Below are positions 46,388-63,300 of a stretch of DNA of 64,000 nucleotides, piece by piece. Position numbers and translations under genes: made by a program. Under the pieces are notes generated by a model. The model was not told where the DNA came from. It did not search any database and saw only the letters and a program-made list of their open reading frames with translations. Position 1 is the stretch's first letter. Every line of letters begins with the position of its first letter. The stretch comes from Cellulomonas sp. NS3 (GTDB lineage: Bacteria > Actinomycetota > Actinomycetes > Actinomycetales > Cellulomonadaceae): assembly GCF_024757985.1 (NCBI RefSeq), contig NZ_CP103289.1:4092001-4156000 (forward strand). Reading direction: 5' to 3'.

Positions 46388-47554
46388 TCAGGCCCGCGCG
46401 TCGTCCCGACGCACCGCGAGCACGGTCACGTCGTCGGCCCGCGCGCGCCCCTGCGCGTCCGCCAGGCGCAGGACCGCGTCGACCGCTCCCTGCGCCGACG
46501 TGACGCCGCGCAGCGCGTCGTGGACCGCAGGGAAGGAGTCAGCGCTGTTCCGGAAGCGCTCGACGAGCCCGTCGCTGAACGTCACGAGCAGGTCCCCGGG
46601 CGCGAGGTGGACCGTGCGCTCGGTGGTCTCCGGCACGGGCAGCACGCCGAGCGGAAGGCCCGACGCCGTCAGCCGGGTGCTCGTGCCGTCGGGGTGCACG
46701 ACGAGCGTCAGGCCGTGGCCCGCGTCGGCGTAGGTCACGTCACCGGTCTCCCGGTCGAGGTGCGCGTGGAAGCTCGTCGCGAGGAAGCCGGTCGCGTGCA
46801 GGTCGGTGTGCAGCACGGCCCCCGCCTCGCCGAGCGCCTGCGCGACGCCCGCCTGACGGGACGCGACGCGCAGCACGGCGCGCACCGACGCCGCCATGAT
46901 GCTCGCGGCGGGCCCGGTGCCGAGCACGTCGACGATGCTCAGCGTCAGCCCGGCCGGAGTCGGCGACCAGTCGAAGAAGTCCCCGCCCACGCCGGCGGCG
47001 ACGCACGCCCCGGCGACGCCGTACCCGGGGACGTGCGGCGCCTCGCGCGGCAGGAGGCCGGCCTGGACCTGGGTGGCCCGCTCGAGCTCCTGCTCGACGG
47101 CCATCTGCGCCTCGACCCAGTGCGCGAGGTCGCGCAGCAGCGCCTCCTGCTCGGGCCCGAACTCGCGGGGTCGGACGTCGACGAGGCACAGCGCGCCGAC
47201 CCGGTGCCCGCCGGGGGCCATGAGCGGCTGACCCGCGTAGAAGCGCACGTGCTCCGCGCCCGCGACGCGCGGGAGGTCCGCGAACCGGGGGTCGAGCGTC
47301 GCGTCGGGGACGACGAGCATGCGGTCCTCGGTGACGGTCGTCGAGCAGAACGTCTGCTCCCGGGGCAGCACGCCACCGGGGTCACCCGCCTTGTGGACGG
47401 TCCGCGTGCGGTCGACCAGGGTCACGAGCGCCGTCGGGACCTCGAAGAGCCGCCGCGCGAGCCGGACGACGTCGTCGAAGCGCCGGTCCGGTCCGGAGTC
47501 GAGCACCCCCAGCCGGTGCAGCGCCTCGACCCGCTCCGCCTCGCTCGCGTGCAC
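46388..47554 (-). CDS. GAF-PP2C (RsbU/SpoIIE-type) phosphatase
   Basis: 388 residues from GTG 47554. A GAF domain (about 1-165; VTLVDRTRTVHKAGDP, HVRFYAGQPLMAPGG) is joined by a helix to a PP2C domain with all metal-binding motifs (GGDFFDW, IVDVLGTGPAAS, YADAGHG, ADDVTVLAV). Such enzymes dephosphorylate STAS anti-anti-sigma proteins. No STAS or kinase gene is beside it, but a paralogue at 59351 sits in a complete module, so cross-talk is possible. G-rich repeats lie upstream at 47648-47760. Confidence 0.92.
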   Translation of the reverse strand: MHASEAERVEALHRLGVLDSGPDRRFDDVVRLARRLFEVPTALVTLVDRTRTVHKAGDPGGVLPREQTFCSTTVTEDRMLVVPDATLDPRFADLPRVAGAEHVRFYAGQPLMAPGGHRVGALCLVDVRPREFGPEQEALLRDLAHWVEAQMAVEQELERATQVQAGLLPREAPHVPGYGVAGACVAAGVGGDFFDWSPTPAGLTLSIVDVLGTGPAASIMAASVRAVLRVASRQAGVAQALGEAGAVLHTDLHATGFLATSFHAHLDRETGDVTYADAGHGLTLVVHPDGTSTRLTASGLPLGVLPVPETTERTVHLAPGDLLVTFSDGLVERFRNSADSFPAVHDALRGVTSAQGAVDAVLRLADAQGRARADDVTVLAVRRDDARA

Positions 47555-47647
47555 CCGGACCCCCGCTTCCTCCGTAGACAGACCACCGGCTCCCCCATCG
47601 GCCGGCGTGCGTCGGACATGAGGGTTCTGGCCGCGAGCCGGGCGGGG

Positions 47648-47760
47648 GTGGGCGCGGCGCTGCGCGGGTCGGGCGGAGGTGGGCGCGGCGCGGGTCGGGT
47701 CGGGCGGAGGTGGGCGCGGCGCGGGTCGGGCGGAGGTGGGCGCGGCGCGCGTCGGGCGGG
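47648..47760. repeat. G-rich tandem repeat, four copies
   Basis: Units beginning GTGGGCGCGGCGC start at 47648, 47679, 47710 and 47736, of 31, 31, 26 and 25 bases, differing mainly by a GTCGG duplication. They lie between the phosphatase start and the GNAT gene end. The + strand G-runs could form quadruplexes; function unknown. Confidence 0.8.
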
Positions 47761-47811
47761 CACGGCGCCGGCCGGACGGGCGGGCTGGGGGTGCCCGACG
47801 ACGGTCGGCCG

Positions 47812-48369
47812 TCAGTCCACGACGGCGCTGCGACGCTCGAGCAGCACGACGTCGCGCCAGACGCCGTCGCGCCGACCGATGCGCTCGCGGACCCCGACGA
47901 CCCGGAACCCGTGCCGCTCGTGCAGCGCGAGCGACGCGATGTTCTCCCGGAACACCCCGGACTGCACGGTCCAGATCCCCGCGGCCTCGGTGCTCGCCAC
48001 GACCGCGCGCACGAGTGCCCCGCCGACGCCGCGGCCGTGGGCCCGGGCGGCCACGTAGACCGAGAGCTCGACGACCCCCGCGTACGCCGCGCGGCTGCTG
48101 ACCGAGGCGACCGCCGCCCAACCGAGCACCCCGTCGGTCCCGTCCAGCGCGACGAACCGGTGCGCGGCGCTGTGCCGGGCGTCCCACTCGTCCCACGTCG
48201 GGACCTGCGTCTCGAACGTCGCGTTCCCGGCGCGCATCCCCTCGTCGAACACCCCGAGGACCCCGCGCGCGTGGGCGGGGGTCAGGGGCAGGACGCGAAC
48301 GGCCGGGCGGTTGGCGGTGCCGTCGGCGGACGACGCGCCGCGGTCGGTCGACGAGGTCTCGTGGGGCAC
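47812..48369 (-). CDS. GNAT acetyltransferase, phosphinothricin-acetyltransferase-like
   Basis: 185 residues from GTG 48369; ATG 48411 would add 14. The fold follows the Pat/Bar family: FEGMRAGNATFETQVPTWDEWD-like substrate segment, then the acetyl-CoA loop RGVGGALV and SGVFRENIASLALHERHGFRVVGVRERIGRRDGVWRDVVLLER. It acetylates an amino-group substrate, possibly methionine sulfoximine or a related compound. Single gene. Confidence 0.88.
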   Translation of the reverse strand: MPHETSSTDRGASSADGTANRPAVRVLPLTPAHARGVLGVFDEGMRAGNATFETQVPTWDEWDARHSAAHRFVALDGTDGVLGWAAVASVSSRAAYAGVVELSVYVAARAHGRGVGGALVRAVVASTEAAGIWTVQSGVFRENIASLALHERHGFRVVGVRERIGRRDGVWRDVVLLERRSAVVD

Positions 48370-48518
48370 GGCGACATCGTCGCACCGGCCGGCCGCGGTC
48401 GACGTCGGCACGGCGCCGGTCGGGAGCGACCGGCGCGCGTCGACGTCGGCCCGCGTCCCGTCGGTGTCCGCCGGCGTCGCCCGGGGGCGGCCCGGGGGCG
48501 GCCCGGCGTCGGCCGGTG

Positions 48519-59350: not shown

Positions 59351-60595
59351 ATGGGGGGAGCAACGCACAGCAGGACCGGGCAGGTCGCGGAGGACGAGCG
59401 CGTCGCCGCAGTCCGCCGCCTCGGCGTGCTCGACACGCCGCCCGAGGAACGGTTCGACCGCGTGGCCCGCCTCGCGCAGCAGCTCTTCCACGTGCCCAAC
59501 GCGATGGTCTCGCTCGTCGACGCCGACCGGCTCTTCTACAAGGCGCACATCGGCACGGAGCTCCAGCAGATCCCGCGCCGGCACTCGTTCTGCTCGATGG
59601 CGATCGCGGAGCCCGCGACGTTCGTCGTCGAGGACGCGTCCGCCGACCCCCGCTACAGCGCCAACCCCTACGTCGCGGGCGACCCGCGGCTGCGGTTCTA
59701 CGCCGGGCAGCCGCTCGTCGCACCCGGCGGCCACCGCGTCGGCACCCTGTGCGTCGCGGACGACCGGCCCCGGGAGTTCTCCGCGGCCGACCGCGCGCTC
59801 CTCGGCGACCTCGCGCGGTGGGTCGAGAAGGAGCTCATCGTCGAGGCCGAGCTGGAGCGTGCCGCGTCGGTGCAGGCCGGGCTGCTGCCCGCCGCTCCCC
59901 CGGTGCTCGACGGCTACGAGGTCGCGGGGGCCTGCCTGCCCGCGCGTGCGGTCGGTGGCGACTTCTACGACTGGGACGTCGCCCCCGGGGGCGTCGCGCT
60001 GACGATCGCCGACGTCATGGGCAAGGGCATGGGCGCGGCGATCCTCGCCGCCACGGTCCGGGCGGTGCTCCGGGCGAGCGGCCGGGCGCGCGGCGTCGAC
60101 GGCGCGCTCGCGGACACCCAGGCCGCCGTCGAGCCCGACCTGCTGGGCTCCGGGAGCTTCGTGACCGCGTTCCACGGGCGCCTCGACACCGCGGCGCACG
60201 AGCTGTCCTACGTCGACGCCGGGCACGGGCTGAGCGTCGTGCTGACGGGCGACGGTCACGTGCGGCGGCTCGTCTCGACGGGGCCGCCGCTCGGCATCCC
60301 GGAGTACCTGGGCGAGCGGCTCGTCACGCGCCTGACCCTCGCGCCGGGCGACCTGCTCGTCACGTTCAGCGACGGGGTCCTGGACGTGCTCGACGGCACG
60401 CTCGCGTCGGTCGACCGGGTCGCCGACGCGGTGCGCGGTGCCGCGTCGGCGCAGGAGGCCGTGGACCGCGTCCTGGCCCTCGCGCCCGCGGGCGTCGAGC
60501 GGCCCGACGACCTCACGGTCCTCGCGCTCCGCCGTTCGGGGGCGCCCTCGGGCCGGAACGGCGACGCGCCGTCCGGTGGGGGGGCCGACGCGTGA
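59351..60595 (+). CDS. GAF-PP2C (RsbU-type) phosphatase
   Basis: 414 residues from ATG 59351. GAF domain (about 10-165; VSLVDADRLFYKAHIG, LRFYAGQPLVAPGG) and PP2C domain (GGDFYDWD, IADVMGKGMGAAI, YVDAGHG, PDDLTVLAL), all metal sites intact. Paralogue of 46388-47554. Its stop overlaps the glycan synthase start by 4 bases. In partner switching it would dephosphorylate the STAS protein encoded two genes on, reversing the RsbW-like kinase. Confidence 0.94.
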   Translation: MGGATHSRTGQVAEDERVAAVRRLGVLDTPPEERFDRVARLAQQLFHVPNAMVSLVDADRLFYKAHIGTELQQIPRRHSFCSMAIAEPATFVVEDASADPRYSANPYVAGDPRLRFYAGQPLVAPGGHRVGTLCVADDRPREFSAADRALLGDLARWVEKELIVEAELERAASVQAGLLPAAPPVLDGYEVAGACLPARAVGGDFYDWDVAPGGVALTIADVMGKGMGAAILAATVRAVLRASGRARGVDGALADTQAAVEPDLLGSGSFVTAFHGRLDTAAHELSYVDAGHGLSVVLTGDGHVRRLVSTGPPLGIPEYLGERLVTRLTLAPGDLLVTFSDGVLDVLDGTLASVDRVADAVRGAASAQEAVDRVLALAPAGVERPDDLTVLALRRSGAPSGRNGDAPSGGGADA

Positions 60596-62550
60596 GGCGC
60601 CAGCTCGCGCTGCGCGTCGCGGTGCTGCTCGCCGTCACGCTCGGCCTCAACTACACGGTCTGGCGCTGGCTCGAGTCGGTGAACTGGTCGGCGTGGTGGA
60701 TCGCCGTGCCGCTCGTGATCGCGGAGACGTACAGCTTCATCGACGTCGCGTTCTTCGGGATGACGATGTGGCGCGCGAAGGACCGCGAGACCCCGCCCCC
60801 GCCGCCCGAGGGCGCGACGGCGGACGTGTTCATCACGACGTACGACGAGCCCGTCGAGATGGTCATGACGACCGCGCTGGCCGCCCGCGACATCCGCTAC
60901 CCGCACCAGACGTACGTGCTCGACGACGGCGCGCGCCCCGGGCTCCGGGCCGCCGCCGACGCGGCGGGCATCGGCTACGTCGTGCGCACCGCCGACTGGG
61001 CCGACCGGCCGCGCCACGCGAAGGCCGGCAACCTCAACAACGCGATGCTCACGACCGACGGCGAGTTCATCCTCATCCTCGACGCCGACCAGATCCCGGA
61101 CCCCGCGATCCTCGACCGCACGCTCGGGTACTTCACCGACGACCGCGTCGCGCTCGTGCAGACCCCGCAGTACTTCACGAACGTGCCCGACGCCGACCCG
61201 CTCGGCAGCCAGGCGCCGCTCTTCTACGGCCCCATCCAGCAGGGCAAGGACGGCTGGAACGCCGCGTTCTTCTGCGGGTCGAACGCCGTGCTGCGGCGCG
61301 ACGCCCTCATGCAGCTCGGGCTCGTCGGCTACGTCCGGGAGACCGAGCGGACGGTGCGGGAGGCGCTCAGGGCCGGCTCGACGGTGCTCGCGCGCAGCCG
61401 CCGGCGCGAGAGCGACCCGCGCGTGCTCGCGGCGCTCGACGAGGTCGAGCTGGCCGTCCGCGACGCCCAGCGCCGGCTGCACGCGCAGGACCCCATCTCG
61501 GAGGTCACGTTCGAGTTCCAGCGCCGGGTCGGCGAGGTGTCCGCGTCGATGGTCACCGCGGACGTCGACGCGATGCGCGCGGACCTCGCCGCGATCTCGG
61601 CGATGAGCACCGGGCGCCACGTCGAGGAGACCACGCTGACCGTCGACGACGCGGCGCTGCGCCGGCTCTCGTCGCGCGACTGGTCCCCGCTCGGGGCGAT
61701 CGAGTCGGTCCGGGCGCTCGTCGCCGCGGTGGACGTCGACCGCTCCGACGAGGCCCAGGCCGTGATGCCGGTCGCGACCGTCTCGGTGACCGAGGACATG
61801 GCCACCGCGATGCGCCTCCACGCCCTCGGCTGGCGCACGGTCTACCACCACGAGCGGCTCGCCGACGGGCTCGCGCCCGAGGACCTCGGCACGATGATCA
61901 CGCAGCGGCTGCGGTGGGCGCAGGGCACGCTCCAGGTGATGCTCAAGGAGAGCCCGCTGACGATGCGCGGGCTGCGCTGGAGCCAGCGGGTCATGTACTT
62001 CTCCACGATGTGGAGCTACCTGTCGGGCTTCGCCGCGGTCGTCTACCTCGCCGCACCGATCATCTTCTTGTGCTTCGGCGTCCTGCCGGTGACCGCGTGG
62101 ACCGTCGACTTCTTCGCGCGGTTCATCCCGTTCCAGCTCGCGAGCCAGCTGCTGTTCGTCGTCGCCGCGCACGGCGTCAAGACGTGGCGCGGTCAGCAGT
62201 ACTCGCTCGCGCTGTTCCCCGTGTGGATCAAGGCCACGGTGACCGCGACCGCGAACGTGTGGTTCGGCCGGCCGCTCGGCTTCGCGGTCACGCCCAAGGT
62301 GCGTCAGGACGGCGGCGGGTCGTGGCGGCTCGTCCTGCCGCAGCTCGTCGCGATGGGCGCGCTCGTCGTCGCCGCGCTGATCGGGCTCGTGCGGTTCGGG
62401 CTCGGCTACGCGCCGTGGATGGGCACGTTCGTGAACCTCGCGTGGGTCGCCTACGACCTCGTGGTGCTCAGTGTCATCGTGGAGGCGCTGCGCTACCGCG
62501 GCTACACCGGTGGCGCGACCAGCGGCTCCAGCAGCAAGGAAGGGCAGTGA
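60592..62550 (+). CDS. GT2 membrane glycosyltransferase, cellulose-synthase-like
   Basis: 652 residues from GTG 60592. Two N-terminal membrane segments, then the GT-A domain: D111-D112 (VLDDG), DAD 164-166 (LDADQIPD), TED at 400-402 and Q438-RLRW (QRLRW); then about four to five C-terminal membrane segments. This is the D,D,D,Q(Q/R)XRW set of processive beta-glycan synthases. It lacks a PilZ domain. Between the donor-site strand (FFCGSNAVLRRDAL) and VTED about 150 extra residues of charged helix are inserted (about 240-395), where relatives have about 20. It makes and probably secretes a polysaccharide. Confidence 0.93.
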   Translation: MRRQLALRVAVLLAVTLGLNYTVWRWLESVNWSAWWIAVPLVIAETYSFIDVAFFGMTMWRAKDRETPPPPPEGATADVFITTYDEPVEMVMTTALAARDIRYPHQTYVLDDGARPGLRAAADAAGIGYVVRTADWADRPRHAKAGNLNNAMLTTDGEFILILDADQIPDPAILDRTLGYFTDDRVALVQTPQYFTNVPDADPLGSQAPLFYGPIQQGKDGWNAAFFCGSNAVLRRDALMQLGLVGYVRETERTVREALRAGSTVLARSRRRESDPRVLAALDEVELAVRDAQRRLHAQDPISEVTFEFQRRVGEVSASMVTADVDAMRADLAAISAMSTGRHVEETTLTVDDAALRRLSSRDWSPLGAIESVRALVAAVDVDRSDEAQAVMPVATVSVTEDMATAMRLHALGWRTVYHHERLADGLAPEDLGTMITQRLRWAQGTLQVMLKESPLTMRGLRWSQRVMYFSTMWSYLSGFAAVVYLAAPIIFLCFGVLPVTAWTVDFFARFIPFQLASQLLFVVAAHGVKTWRGQQYSLALFPVWIKATVTATANVWFGRPLGFAVTPKVRQDGGGSWRLVLPQLVAMGALVVAALIGLVRFGLGYAPWMGTFVNLAWVAYDLVVLSVIVEALRYRGYTGGATSGSSSKEGQ

Positions 62551-62891
62551 CGCGCATGCAGCTCGACAGGGACGTCCGACCCGACGGGATCGCGGTGCTC
62601 CGGCCGCGCGGCCGGCTCACGATGGTCGCCGCGAGCGACCTCAAGGCCGTGGTCGACGACGTGGTGGCCCAGGGTCACACCGTCGTGGTGGTGGACCTGC
62701 AGGACACCGAGTTCATGGACTCGTCCGGGCTCGGTGCCCTCGTCGGGGGCCTGCGCTCGGCCCGGGCGGCCGGCGGGGACCTGCGCATCGCGCGGCCCTC
62801 CACGCAGGTCCGCACGGTGCTCGAGCTCACGACGATGGACCGGGTGCTGCGGCCGCACGCGAGCGTCGAGGACGCCGTCGGTGCCGGCTGA
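62547..62891 (+). CDS. STAS-domain anti-anti-sigma-type protein
   Basis: 114 residues from GTG 62547, overlapping the synthase stop (ATG 62556 alternative), with AAGGAAGGG upstream. STAS fold with the phosphorylation motif FMDSSGLGAL (Ser59/Ser60). Normally its unphosphorylated form binds the RsbW-like kinase. It is encoded between synthase and kinase. Confidence 0.93.
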   Translation: MTRMQLDRDVRPDGIAVLRPRGRLTMVAASDLKAVVDDVVAQGHTVVVVDLQDTEFMDSSGLGALVGGLRSARAAGGDLRIARPSTQVRTVLELTTMDRVLRPHASVEDAVGAG

Positions 62892-63300
62892 CCGACCGGT
62901 CGAGACGCGGGTCGAGCACTGCGTCCTGCCCGGCTGCATCGAGCGCGTGCACCACGCGCTGGCCGGGCTGTGGGAGCAGGCGCCCGACGTCCCCGAGCTC
63001 GACCGGATGATGTTCGAGACCGCGGTGATCGAGGTCACCGCCAACGTGATCGAGCACGCCGAGCGCGGCGACGACTTCGACGCGGACGTGGTGCTGCGCG
63101 TCGAGGACGGGGCGCTCGTCGGCGAGCTGACCGACACCGGCGGCTTCGTCGACGTCGACCTCGACGTGGACCTCCCCGAGGACGACCTCGCCACGAACGG
63201 CCGGGGCATCCCGCTCGCGCGCCGGGCGGTGCACGAGATCTCCTACCGGCGCGGCGAGGGGCGCAACCACTGGCGCCTCGTGCGGCACTGGCAGGGTTGA
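62881..63300 (+). CDS. RsbW-like anti-sigma/serine kinase (HATPase)
   Basis: 139 residues from GTG 62881, overlapping the STAS gene by 11 bases. GHKL ATPase features: N-box ETAVIEVTANVIEHA, a G1-like ELTDTGGF, G2 NGRGIPLARRAV. Such kinases phosphorylate STAS proteins and sequester a target, usually a sigma factor. No sigma-factor gene follows, so the target here may be something else, possibly the glycan synthase. Confidence 0.92.
   Translation: MPADRPVETRVEHCVLPGCIERVHHALAGLWEQAPDVPELDRMMFETAVIEVTANVIEHAERGDDFDADVVLRVEDGALVGELTDTGGFVDVDLDVDLPEDDLATNGRGIPLARRAVHEISYRRGEGRNHWRLVRHWQG

What the first reader, a model, noticed from the sequence alone, without database searches (positions are those of the whole stretch)
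59351..63300. Partner-switching module wired to a glycan synthase
A GAF-PP2C phosphatase, a GT2 cellulose-synthase-like enzyme, a STAS antagonist and an RsbW-like kinase are translationally coupled (overlaps of 4, 4 and 11 bases). Partner switching normally controls a sigma factor; here none follows, and the output most tightly linked is a polysaccharide synthase. A direct, post-translational control of glycan export by STAS/kinase state is plausible.
Basis: partly seen in the sequence, partly recalled or inferred. Interest (0 to 1): 0.72.

Follow-up and report, generated by a model that had tools for sequence, protein, structure and literature searches.

The report
Protein switch attached to a glucan synthase
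A four-gene bacterial operon joins an on/off protein switch, best known for controlling gene expression, to a membrane enzyme that probably makes a cellulose-like sugar chain; the pairing recurs in many bacteria and suggests that the switch turns the enzyme itself on and off.

Summary
In detail: GAF-PP2C phosphatase, GT2 synthase, STAS protein and RsbW-like kinase overlap by 4, 4 and 11 bases.

It is a conserved module. Of the 80 best GT2 relatives, chosen by GT2 sequence alone, 75 have STAS directly downstream and 74 STAS then kinase. Looser clusters occur in Nostoc and Proteobacteria. No SigB/F/G sigma factor passes the cut-off here.

The main new clue is one clade of GT2 paralogs, in 16 genomes, with no phosphatase or kinase nearby. 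All 16 keep STAS directly 3', but its phospho-acceptor serine is Ala or Pro. This points to STAS, not the kinase, as the synthase's partner.

Switch-linked synthases have 41-184 residues between FCG and TED motifs; seven BcsA/BgsA-type controls, one with a PP2C gene upstream, have 19. The actinobacterial insert is predicted as three long helices, a candidate docking site.

Direct binding, the activating state and the polymer are inferred. Best reading: dephosphorylated STAS switches the synthase on, as SiaC does SiaD. New variant of a known kind.

The parts
59351..60595 (+). GAF-PP2C (SpoIIE/RsbU-type) serine phosphatase
   Evidence: Pfam SpoIIE 113 bits, GAF 62 bits; PDB relatives of the PP2C part 3es2, 3eq2, 3ke6 and of the GAF part 4zmu
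60592..62550 (+). GT2 cellulose-synthase-like membrane glycosyltransferase without PilZ domain
   Evidence: Pfam Cellulose_synt and GT2 models, no PilZ match; TIGR03030 CelA 325.5 bits, under its 699.1 cut-off; best Foldseek hit E. coli BcsA 9b8v, E 1.7e-23
61327..61770 (+). 148-residue insert (residues 246-393 of the GT2) between the FFCGSN and TED motifs; proposed STAS or kinase docking element
   Evidence: no counterpart in BcsA; FCG-to-TED spacing 164-184 in 112 module-clade rows, some of them duplicates, against 19 in 7 of 7 controls; three long helices in the model
62547..62891 (+). STAS (RsbV/SpoIIAA-like) protein; phospho-acceptor Ser59 at 62721-62723
   Evidence: Pfam STAS 67.7 bits; aligned with SpoIIAA 1th8/1tid; D-S kept in 102 of 109 rows
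62881..63300 (+). RsbW-like HATPase, putative serine kinase, N-box E51/N55/H59
   Evidence: Pfam HATPase_c_2 46.7 bits; profile best PDB hit RsbW 6m36, E 4.8e-8; N-box residues and GRG invariant in 15 of 15 aligned

Best explanation
A partner-switching module whose output is the GT2 synthase encoded with it. When the GAF-PP2C phosphatase is active it removes phosphate from Ser59 of the STAS protein; the RsbW-like kinase puts it back. The dephosphorylated STAS protein binds the cytosolic face of the synthase, most likely through the helical insert between the FCG and TED motifs, and licenses polymerisation and export of a glucan; phosphorylated STAS lets go. Shown by sequence: the four genes, their coupling, their conservation, the insert, and the joint absence of neighbouring kinase and phosphatase and of the phospho-serine in one clade that keeps STAS. 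Inferred: the enzymatic reactions of the switch, that STAS touches the GT2, that the unphosphorylated form is the active one, that the insert is the contact, and that the polymer is a beta-glucan.
For: GT2-STAS-kinase order in 74 of 80 loci, each of the 20 genus labels represented. STAS directly 3' of GT2 in 75 of 80; by the nearest possible start codon it overlaps the GT2 stop in 63 of those 75. Sixteen kinase-less paralogs (G028, G298, G235; 13 more, G119 among them) keep STAS 27-145 nt 3' of GT2 with the Ser59 position Ala or Pro in 16 of 16. Seven of the 16 were put in a tree and form one clade, 100/100; its place inside the module clade has 92/75 support. FCG-to-TED spacing is 41-184 in switch-linked synthases and 19 in seven controls. 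Kinase N-box and GRG are invariant and the phosphatase aligns with PP2C structures. No SigB/F/G sigma over cut-off. Looser linkage in Nostoc, Alpha- and Gammaproteobacteria. Precedent: SiaC-SiaD (passages).
Against: There are no binding or activity data. GT2 without STAS in view: L036, L101, L119 and L209; L119 and L209 show only 0.8 and 0.5 kb of 3' sequence, and the genomes of L101 and L119 hold a full module elsewhere (L051, L116). L081 keeps an intact STAS serine but shows no kinase or phosphatase in the fetched stretch. Control L175, a BcsA with spacing 19, has a PP2C gene and a weak STAS hit (E 0.005) upstream. In Proteobacteria most switch genes lie several genes from the GT2 or on the other strand. 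The kinase-less clade is one lineage with a long stem and strongly diverged STAS, so the joint losses may be a single event. The usual DxGxG box is not conserved among the kinases. This genome has 38 GGDEF places, so a c-di-GMP step cannot be excluded.
Confidence: 0.62

Rival explanations
1. Kinase as effector: the RsbW-like kinase binds and holds the synthase (or its insert) as RsbW holds sigma-B, and dephosphorylated STAS frees the synthase by binding the kinase.
For: Canonical RsbW logic (established knowledge); kinase directly after STAS in 74 of 80 loci. A WSPLGA-type element in the insert is present in 98 of 114 module-clade rows and 0 of 17 kinase-less rows, which would fit a kinase-contact motif.
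Against: Kinase-less paralogs keep STAS, not the kinase, beside the GT2, which this model does not predict. Sixteen module-clade rows lack the strict motif.
Confidence: 0.18
2. Indirect route through c-di-GMP: STAS controls a diguanylate cyclase elsewhere, as BgrV controls BgrR in Sinorhizobium mixed-linkage glucan synthesis, and the synthase answers to c-di-GMP.
For: Bgr precedent (passages of PMC7647112; the original paper was not read). 38 GGDEF places in this genome. A PilZ gene stands beside the Sphingobium GT2. A GGDEF protein lies in the Cellulomonas hominis locus L033.
Against: No PilZ match on the GT2; only one PilZ place in the genome; GGDEF-like ORFs found in only 2 of 80 loci, L033 and L090, by phmmer with two GGDEF queries (an earlier motif search had found only L090).
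Confidence: 0.12
3. A hidden transcriptional target: the module controls a sigma or other regulator encoded elsewhere, and the synthase is a co-transcribed passenger or regulon member.
For: Classical outputs of RsbW/RsbV; other STAS and HATPase genes in the genome could cross-talk.
Against: No SigB/F/G-type sigma over the cut-off; the three full-length matches are RpoD, WhiG and a FliA/WhiG-like factor. The GT2 is the conserved partner. Not closed: the 13 remaining weak matches were not examined, and RpoD also passes the NF005920 'SigB' model (468.7 against 464 bits).
Confidence: 0.08

Closest known systems
SiaABCD of Pseudomonas aeruginosa (PP2C SiaA, kinase SiaB, antagonist SiaC, diguanylate cyclase SiaD)
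   Same: Phosphatase, kinase and antagonist encoded with the enzyme that they control; unphosphorylated antagonist binds and activates the enzyme (passages of PMC8457831; co-transcription from the abstract start of PMC7278518 in the listing)
   Different: SiaC is DUF1987, related to STAS in structure, and the enzyme makes c-di-GMP; here a Pfam STAS protein is tied to a glycan synthase
BgrUVW-BgrR / BgsA of Sinorhizobium meliloti (mixed-linkage beta-glucan)
   Same: Partner switch controlling a GT2 beta-glucan synthase (passage of PMC7647112; original paper not read)
   Different: There the switch acts on a diguanylate cyclase and BgsA answers to c-di-GMP (start of the abstract of PMC5567048 in the listing). 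The R. etli GT2 beside an HlyD gene (L182), which I take for BgsA by recalled gene context, has spacing 19 and no switch genes in the fetched 14 kb
SypA/SypE (Vibrio fischeri) and HmpUVW (Nostoc punctiforme)
   Same: STAS-based switches controlling polysaccharide or biofilm; unphosphorylated STAS active or suggested to be; target unknown (PMC8256260 section 6; PMC4517449 passages)
   Different: No GT2 encoded directly with STAS and proposed as its target is described in the passages that I saw
RsbU-RsbV-RsbW of Bacillus
   Same: PP2C, STAS, HATPase kinase
   Different: No SigB; a synthase takes that place
BcsA cellulose synthase
   Same: Fold and catalytic motifs
   Different: No PilZ, an added insert, none of the Bcs partner genes among the four genes of the module, under the CelA cut-off

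Membership tests
RsbU/V/W-type partner-switching system | PP2C phosphatase, STAS protein with phospho-acceptor Ser, HATPase kinase with N-box, encoded together | tested here: met
RsbU/V/W-type partner-switching system | Kinase phosphorylates STAS, PP2C reverses it | not testable with these tools
   needs biochemistry
RsbU/V/W-type partner-switching system | Output is a SigB/F-type sigma factor | tested here: not met
   none in the module; none over the TIGR02980 cut-off in the genome
BcsA cellulose synthase (TIGR03030) | Score over curated cut-off | tested here: not met
   325.5 against 699.1 bits
BcsA cellulose synthase (TIGR03030) | C-terminal PilZ c-di-GMP domain | tested here: not met
   no PilZ match
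BcsA cellulose synthase (TIGR03030) | GT2 fold with DDG, DAD, TED and QRLRW motifs | tested here: met
SiaABCD-like enzyme-controlling switch | Switch genes and target enzyme in one conserved gene group | tested here: met
   (that the GT2 is the target is inferred)
SiaABCD-like enzyme-controlling switch | Antagonist binds and activates the enzyme when unphosphorylated | not testable with these tools
   inferred from kinase-less paralogs
SiaABCD-like enzyme-controlling switch | Antagonist is DUF1987 and enzyme a diguanylate cyclase | tested here: not met
   Pfam STAS and GT2
Mixed-linkage beta-glucan synthase | Product is (1,3;1,4)-beta-glucan | tested here: inconclusive
   GH26 in 21 of 80 loci by phmmer, GH16 in 0 of 80; six of the 21 GH26 confirmed by Pfam; GH16 beside two kinase-less copies and in Sphingobium; product not assayed

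The most novel reading that the evidence does not exclude
STAS is a dedicated, phosphorylation-gated regulatory subunit of a widespread class of beta-glucan synthases in Actinomycetota, Cyanobacteria and Proteobacteria: partner switching gates glycan polymerisation at the enzyme itself, doing the job that the PilZ domain and c-di-GMP do in BcsA, with an insert between the FCG and TED motifs as docking site. One clade has made the subunit constitutive by losing kinase, phosphatase and phospho-serine.
Probability: 0.45. Interest if true: 0.85.

Novelty: new variant of a known kind. Interest (0 to 1): 0.7.

Why it matters
Several STAS switches are known to control polysaccharides through unknown targets (SypA, HmpV; PMC8256260). 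This module offers a ready candidate for such a target, encoded one gene away, with point mutants that test it at once. If true, it adds a post-translational control layer for glycan synthases beside c-di-GMP, with a natural experiment (kinase-less, serine-less copies in 16 genomes) already done by evolution.

Tried and rejected
Sigma target beyond the window: rejected; the following gene is shared only with the near-identical G002 among the seven relatives checked, and no SigB/F/G sigma passes its cut-off. Membership of BcsA: rejected by score and missing PilZ. phmmer of the kinase against PDB found nothing at E <= 0.01; a profile of 15 kinases found RsbW. The DUF3131 literature (listing only) looked unrelated. 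PMC10237404 (orphan BcsA-like proteins, passages) has no mention of STAS or anti-sigma. GH16 as a general marker of the module: not borne out, 0 of 80 loci. A residue-level co-variation test between STAS and GT2 was considered and left out: too few independent pairs. The first spacing script stopped at an earlier TED-like triplet in five rows (122 in L058, L084, L088, L205, L212); corrected to 170. In one search the motif printed for L024, L118 (DVSG) and L197 (IVSG) is a wrong regex match; L024 and L118 are read from alignments (SPSG), and L197, whose fetched stretch ends about 0.5 kb after the GT2, was not used. The motif count of GGDEF (1 of 80) had missed L033 and is replaced (2 of 80).
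Full report
What is there. The window is G000:C1:4092001-4156000 of a 4.78-Mb genome, 75% G+C. Its closest relative found, G002, matches the GT2 at 97% and appears to be Cellulomonas cellasea, since L028 of that name has a contig of the same length (296,705 bases). Pfam finds GAF and SpoIIE/PP2C, Cellulose_synt/GT2, STAS and HATPase_c_2.

Is the grouping real? In 75 of 80 a STAS gene follows directly on the same strand; in 74 of 80 a kinase follows that; a PP2C lies somewhere in the fetched stretch in 74 of 80; the full order PP2C-GT2-STAS-kinase holds in at least 64 of 80 (only the two nearest PP2C hits per locus were kept). Each of the 20 genus labels (one is a family-level MAG) has at least one STAS-kinase locus. 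Many rows are Arthrobacter and kin, so they are not independent; L104 and L105 look like near-copies. The six loci outside the 74 are L036 and L101 (no switch genes in the fetched stretch, which for L036 is only about 3 kb upstream and 6 kb downstream), L081 (STAS only), and L040, L045 and L075 (STAS and kinase about 1.5-3.6 kb from the GT2 on the other strand). The GT2 is patchy: 8 of 59 relatives, 15 of 297 genomes of the order and 2 of 396 of the phylum at E <= 1e-60, the own genome counted in each. The gene after the module was found only in the own genome and G002 among the eight surroundings fetched.

Wider linkage. By tblastn on plasmids I picked high-ranking hits by eye, so these are examples and not a survey. 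Nostoc UHCC 0926 has GT2, STAS 1 kb downstream, PP2C and an HATPase within about 5 kb. Of nine proteobacterial GT2 records of the long-spacing type, seven (Sphingobium, Paracoccus seriniphilus, Pseudooceanicola, Pantoea agglomerans, P. stewartii, Vibrio THAF190c, Chimaeribacter) have PP2C, STAS and HATPase within the fetched 13-15 kb; P. liaowanqingii shows PP2C hits only, and Rhodobacteraceae SC52 shows no hit to my profiles and an annotated ATP-binding protein cut by the edge. Their neighbours include DUF3131 proteins, acyltransferase or OpgC genes and, in Sphingobium, GH16 and PilZ genes.

The most informative exception. A second GT2 form has no kinase or phosphatase nearby. It was seen in G028 (17 kb fetched around it), G298, G235 and G119, and a search of 121 genomes of G119's genus, 79 of which have a GT2 match of any form, gave 13 genomes with this form, G119 among them: 16 genomes in all. 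The 3' stretch searched was 0.7-1.5 kb in those 13 (0.7 kb in L194, at a contig end) and about 1.3-1.4 kb in G298 and G235. All 16 keep a STAS domain on the same strand, 27-145 nt after the GT2 end. The phospho-acceptor, the first Ser of DSSG, mapped through SpoIIAA structures, is Ala (GASG) in 14 and Pro (SPSG, in G028 and G298) in two of the 16, while D-S stands in 102 of 109 STAS rows overall (the seven others are G028, G298, G235 and G119, three of them counted twice). A maximum-likelihood tree of 53 GT2 rows puts the seven kinase-less rows that I included in one clade (100/100); its place inside the actinobacterial module clade, with only L023 outside, has 92/75 support; the seven controls stand apart (100/99), with a warning about long branches. 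Since Nostoc and the proteobacterial relatives outside also have switch genes, the ancestor most likely had the switch, and this lineage lost kinase, phosphatase and the serine but kept STAS. If STAS only talked to the kinase, it should have gone with it. Against over-reading: it is one clade on a long stem, its STAS is strongly diverged (E 1e-5 to 1e-12), and L081 has an intact serine without a kinase in view.

The insert. E. coli BcsA has 19 residues between FFCGSC and TED (counted from the alignment). All seven controls (L175-L179, L182, L183) have 19; the nine proteobacterial GT2 records above have 61-65, Nostoc 41, kinase-less copies 128-135, module GT2 164-184 in 112 rows, duplicates included (L080 did not match the motif). 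One control, L175, has a PP2C gene and a weak STAS hit upstream and so blurs the contrast. The insert is the least conserved part of the GT2 (mean identity to the window's residue 0.47 against 0.60-0.80 elsewhere) but holds conserved positions, including a WSPLGA-type motif present in 98 of 114 module-clade rows and 0 of 17 kinase-less rows (ids on a list of 17 duplicates or superseded pieces and rows under 400 bits were dropped before the count; L121 and L184 are the same locus, so 16 kinase-less loci). AlphaFold2 on 44 sequences (mean pLDDT 76) makes the region three long helices, 236-272, 276-297 and 302-337, with a low-confidence tail. The best fold match of the whole model is E. coli BcsA. 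By homology to BcsA this part is cytosolic (established knowledge), where STAS and kinase are.

Enzymatic parts. DDG, DAD, TED and QRLRW are invariant in 9 rows and invariant or at least 90% conserved in 49. The kinase N-box Glu, Asn and His and the GRG box are invariant in 15 of 15 aligned sequences, but the usual DxGxG box (recalled) is not. Profile search of PDB finds RsbW first. The phosphatase aligns with PP2C structures.

Other targets. TIGR02980 (SigB/F/G) has 16 weak matches and none over the cut-off. The three full-length ones are RpoD, WhiG and a FliA/WhiG-like protein under its own cut-off (163 against 189.6 bits); RpoD also passes NF005920, named SigB, which I take to be the actinobacterial primary-like SigB (recall). 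A c-di-GMP detour is possible in principle: 38 GGDEF places and one PilZ place in the genome, but GGDEF-like ORFs were found in only 2 of 80 loci, L033 and L090 (phmmer with two queries; L033 confirmed by Pfam).

Product. GH26 genes lie in 21 of 80 loci by phmmer (six checked by Pfam), beside both kinase-less loci scanned (L024, L184), and about 5.5 kb downstream of the module in this genome, beyond the window and behind an FtsH-like gene on the other strand. GH16 stands beside the same two kinase-less copies and in Sphingobium but in none of the 80 loci. The Nostoc GH26 hit is below the Pfam cut-off. GH16 and GH26 both contain lichenases (recall), so a (1,3;1,4)- or (1,3)-beta-glucan is my guess.

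Literature. Searches in an open-licence PMC library listed no paper that, from title or abstract start, describes a STAS-kinase-phosphatase module encoded with a GT2 synthase as its target; subscription papers are mostly missing. Closest: SiaC-SiaD (PMC8457831, passages), BgrV-BgrR (PMC7647112, passages; Baena 2019 itself not read), SypA and HmpV with unknown targets (PMC8256260, passages and section 6; PMC4517449, passages). PMC8256260 also mentions Anabaena all4160, a glycosyltransferase with an N-terminal STAS domain, a natural fusion in the spirit of this reading. PMC11418112 (passages) describes the phosphatase family in transcriptional control and has no mention of glycosyltransferase or polysaccharide.

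Judgement. Functional linkage of switch and synthase: about 0.95. STAS as direct effector: about 0.65. Activation by the unphosphorylated form, given that: likely but untested. Insert as the contact: about 0.5. Beta-glucan product: about 0.6.

Noticed in passing
window 46388-48385, - strand (match about 46407-47542): A second GAF-PP2C paralog (67% DNA identity) in the window, with none of the genome's STAS or GT2 (PF00535) places beside it; its metal-site motif reads VDVLGTG instead of ADVMGKG.
   Followed up: partly
G000:C1:248843-250003 (L002): The closest GAF-PP2C paralog in the genome, 72% DNA identity over nearly the whole gene.
   Followed up: no
G000:C1:2784686-2789576: A dense cluster of STAS and HATPase_c_2 hits, stressosome-like, in a genome without a SigB-type sigma over cut-off.
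   Followed up: no
L025:9503-10843 (G000:C1 about 4159502-4160842): An ice-binding-like (PF11999) domain behind a signal-peptidase-like N-terminus (weak, under cut-off) in one ORF.
   Followed up: partly
window about 9.6, 22.6, 38.5 and 42.5 kb; PilZ at about 41 kb: Four GGDEF places and the genome's only PilZ place lie in this window; the genome has 38 GGDEF places.
   Followed up: no
L026:7863-9875 (Nostoc plasmid pn1): The cyanobacterial GT2 carries a different, long insert before the KAGN motif, with only a short one before TED.
   Followed up: no
L127-L132, L180, L181: Proteobacterial plasmid GT2 gene clusters, most of them with partner-switch genes and, in all but Sphingobium (L127) and the unannotated Vibrio record (L132), DUF3131 and OpgC or acyltransferase genes.
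   Followed up: partly
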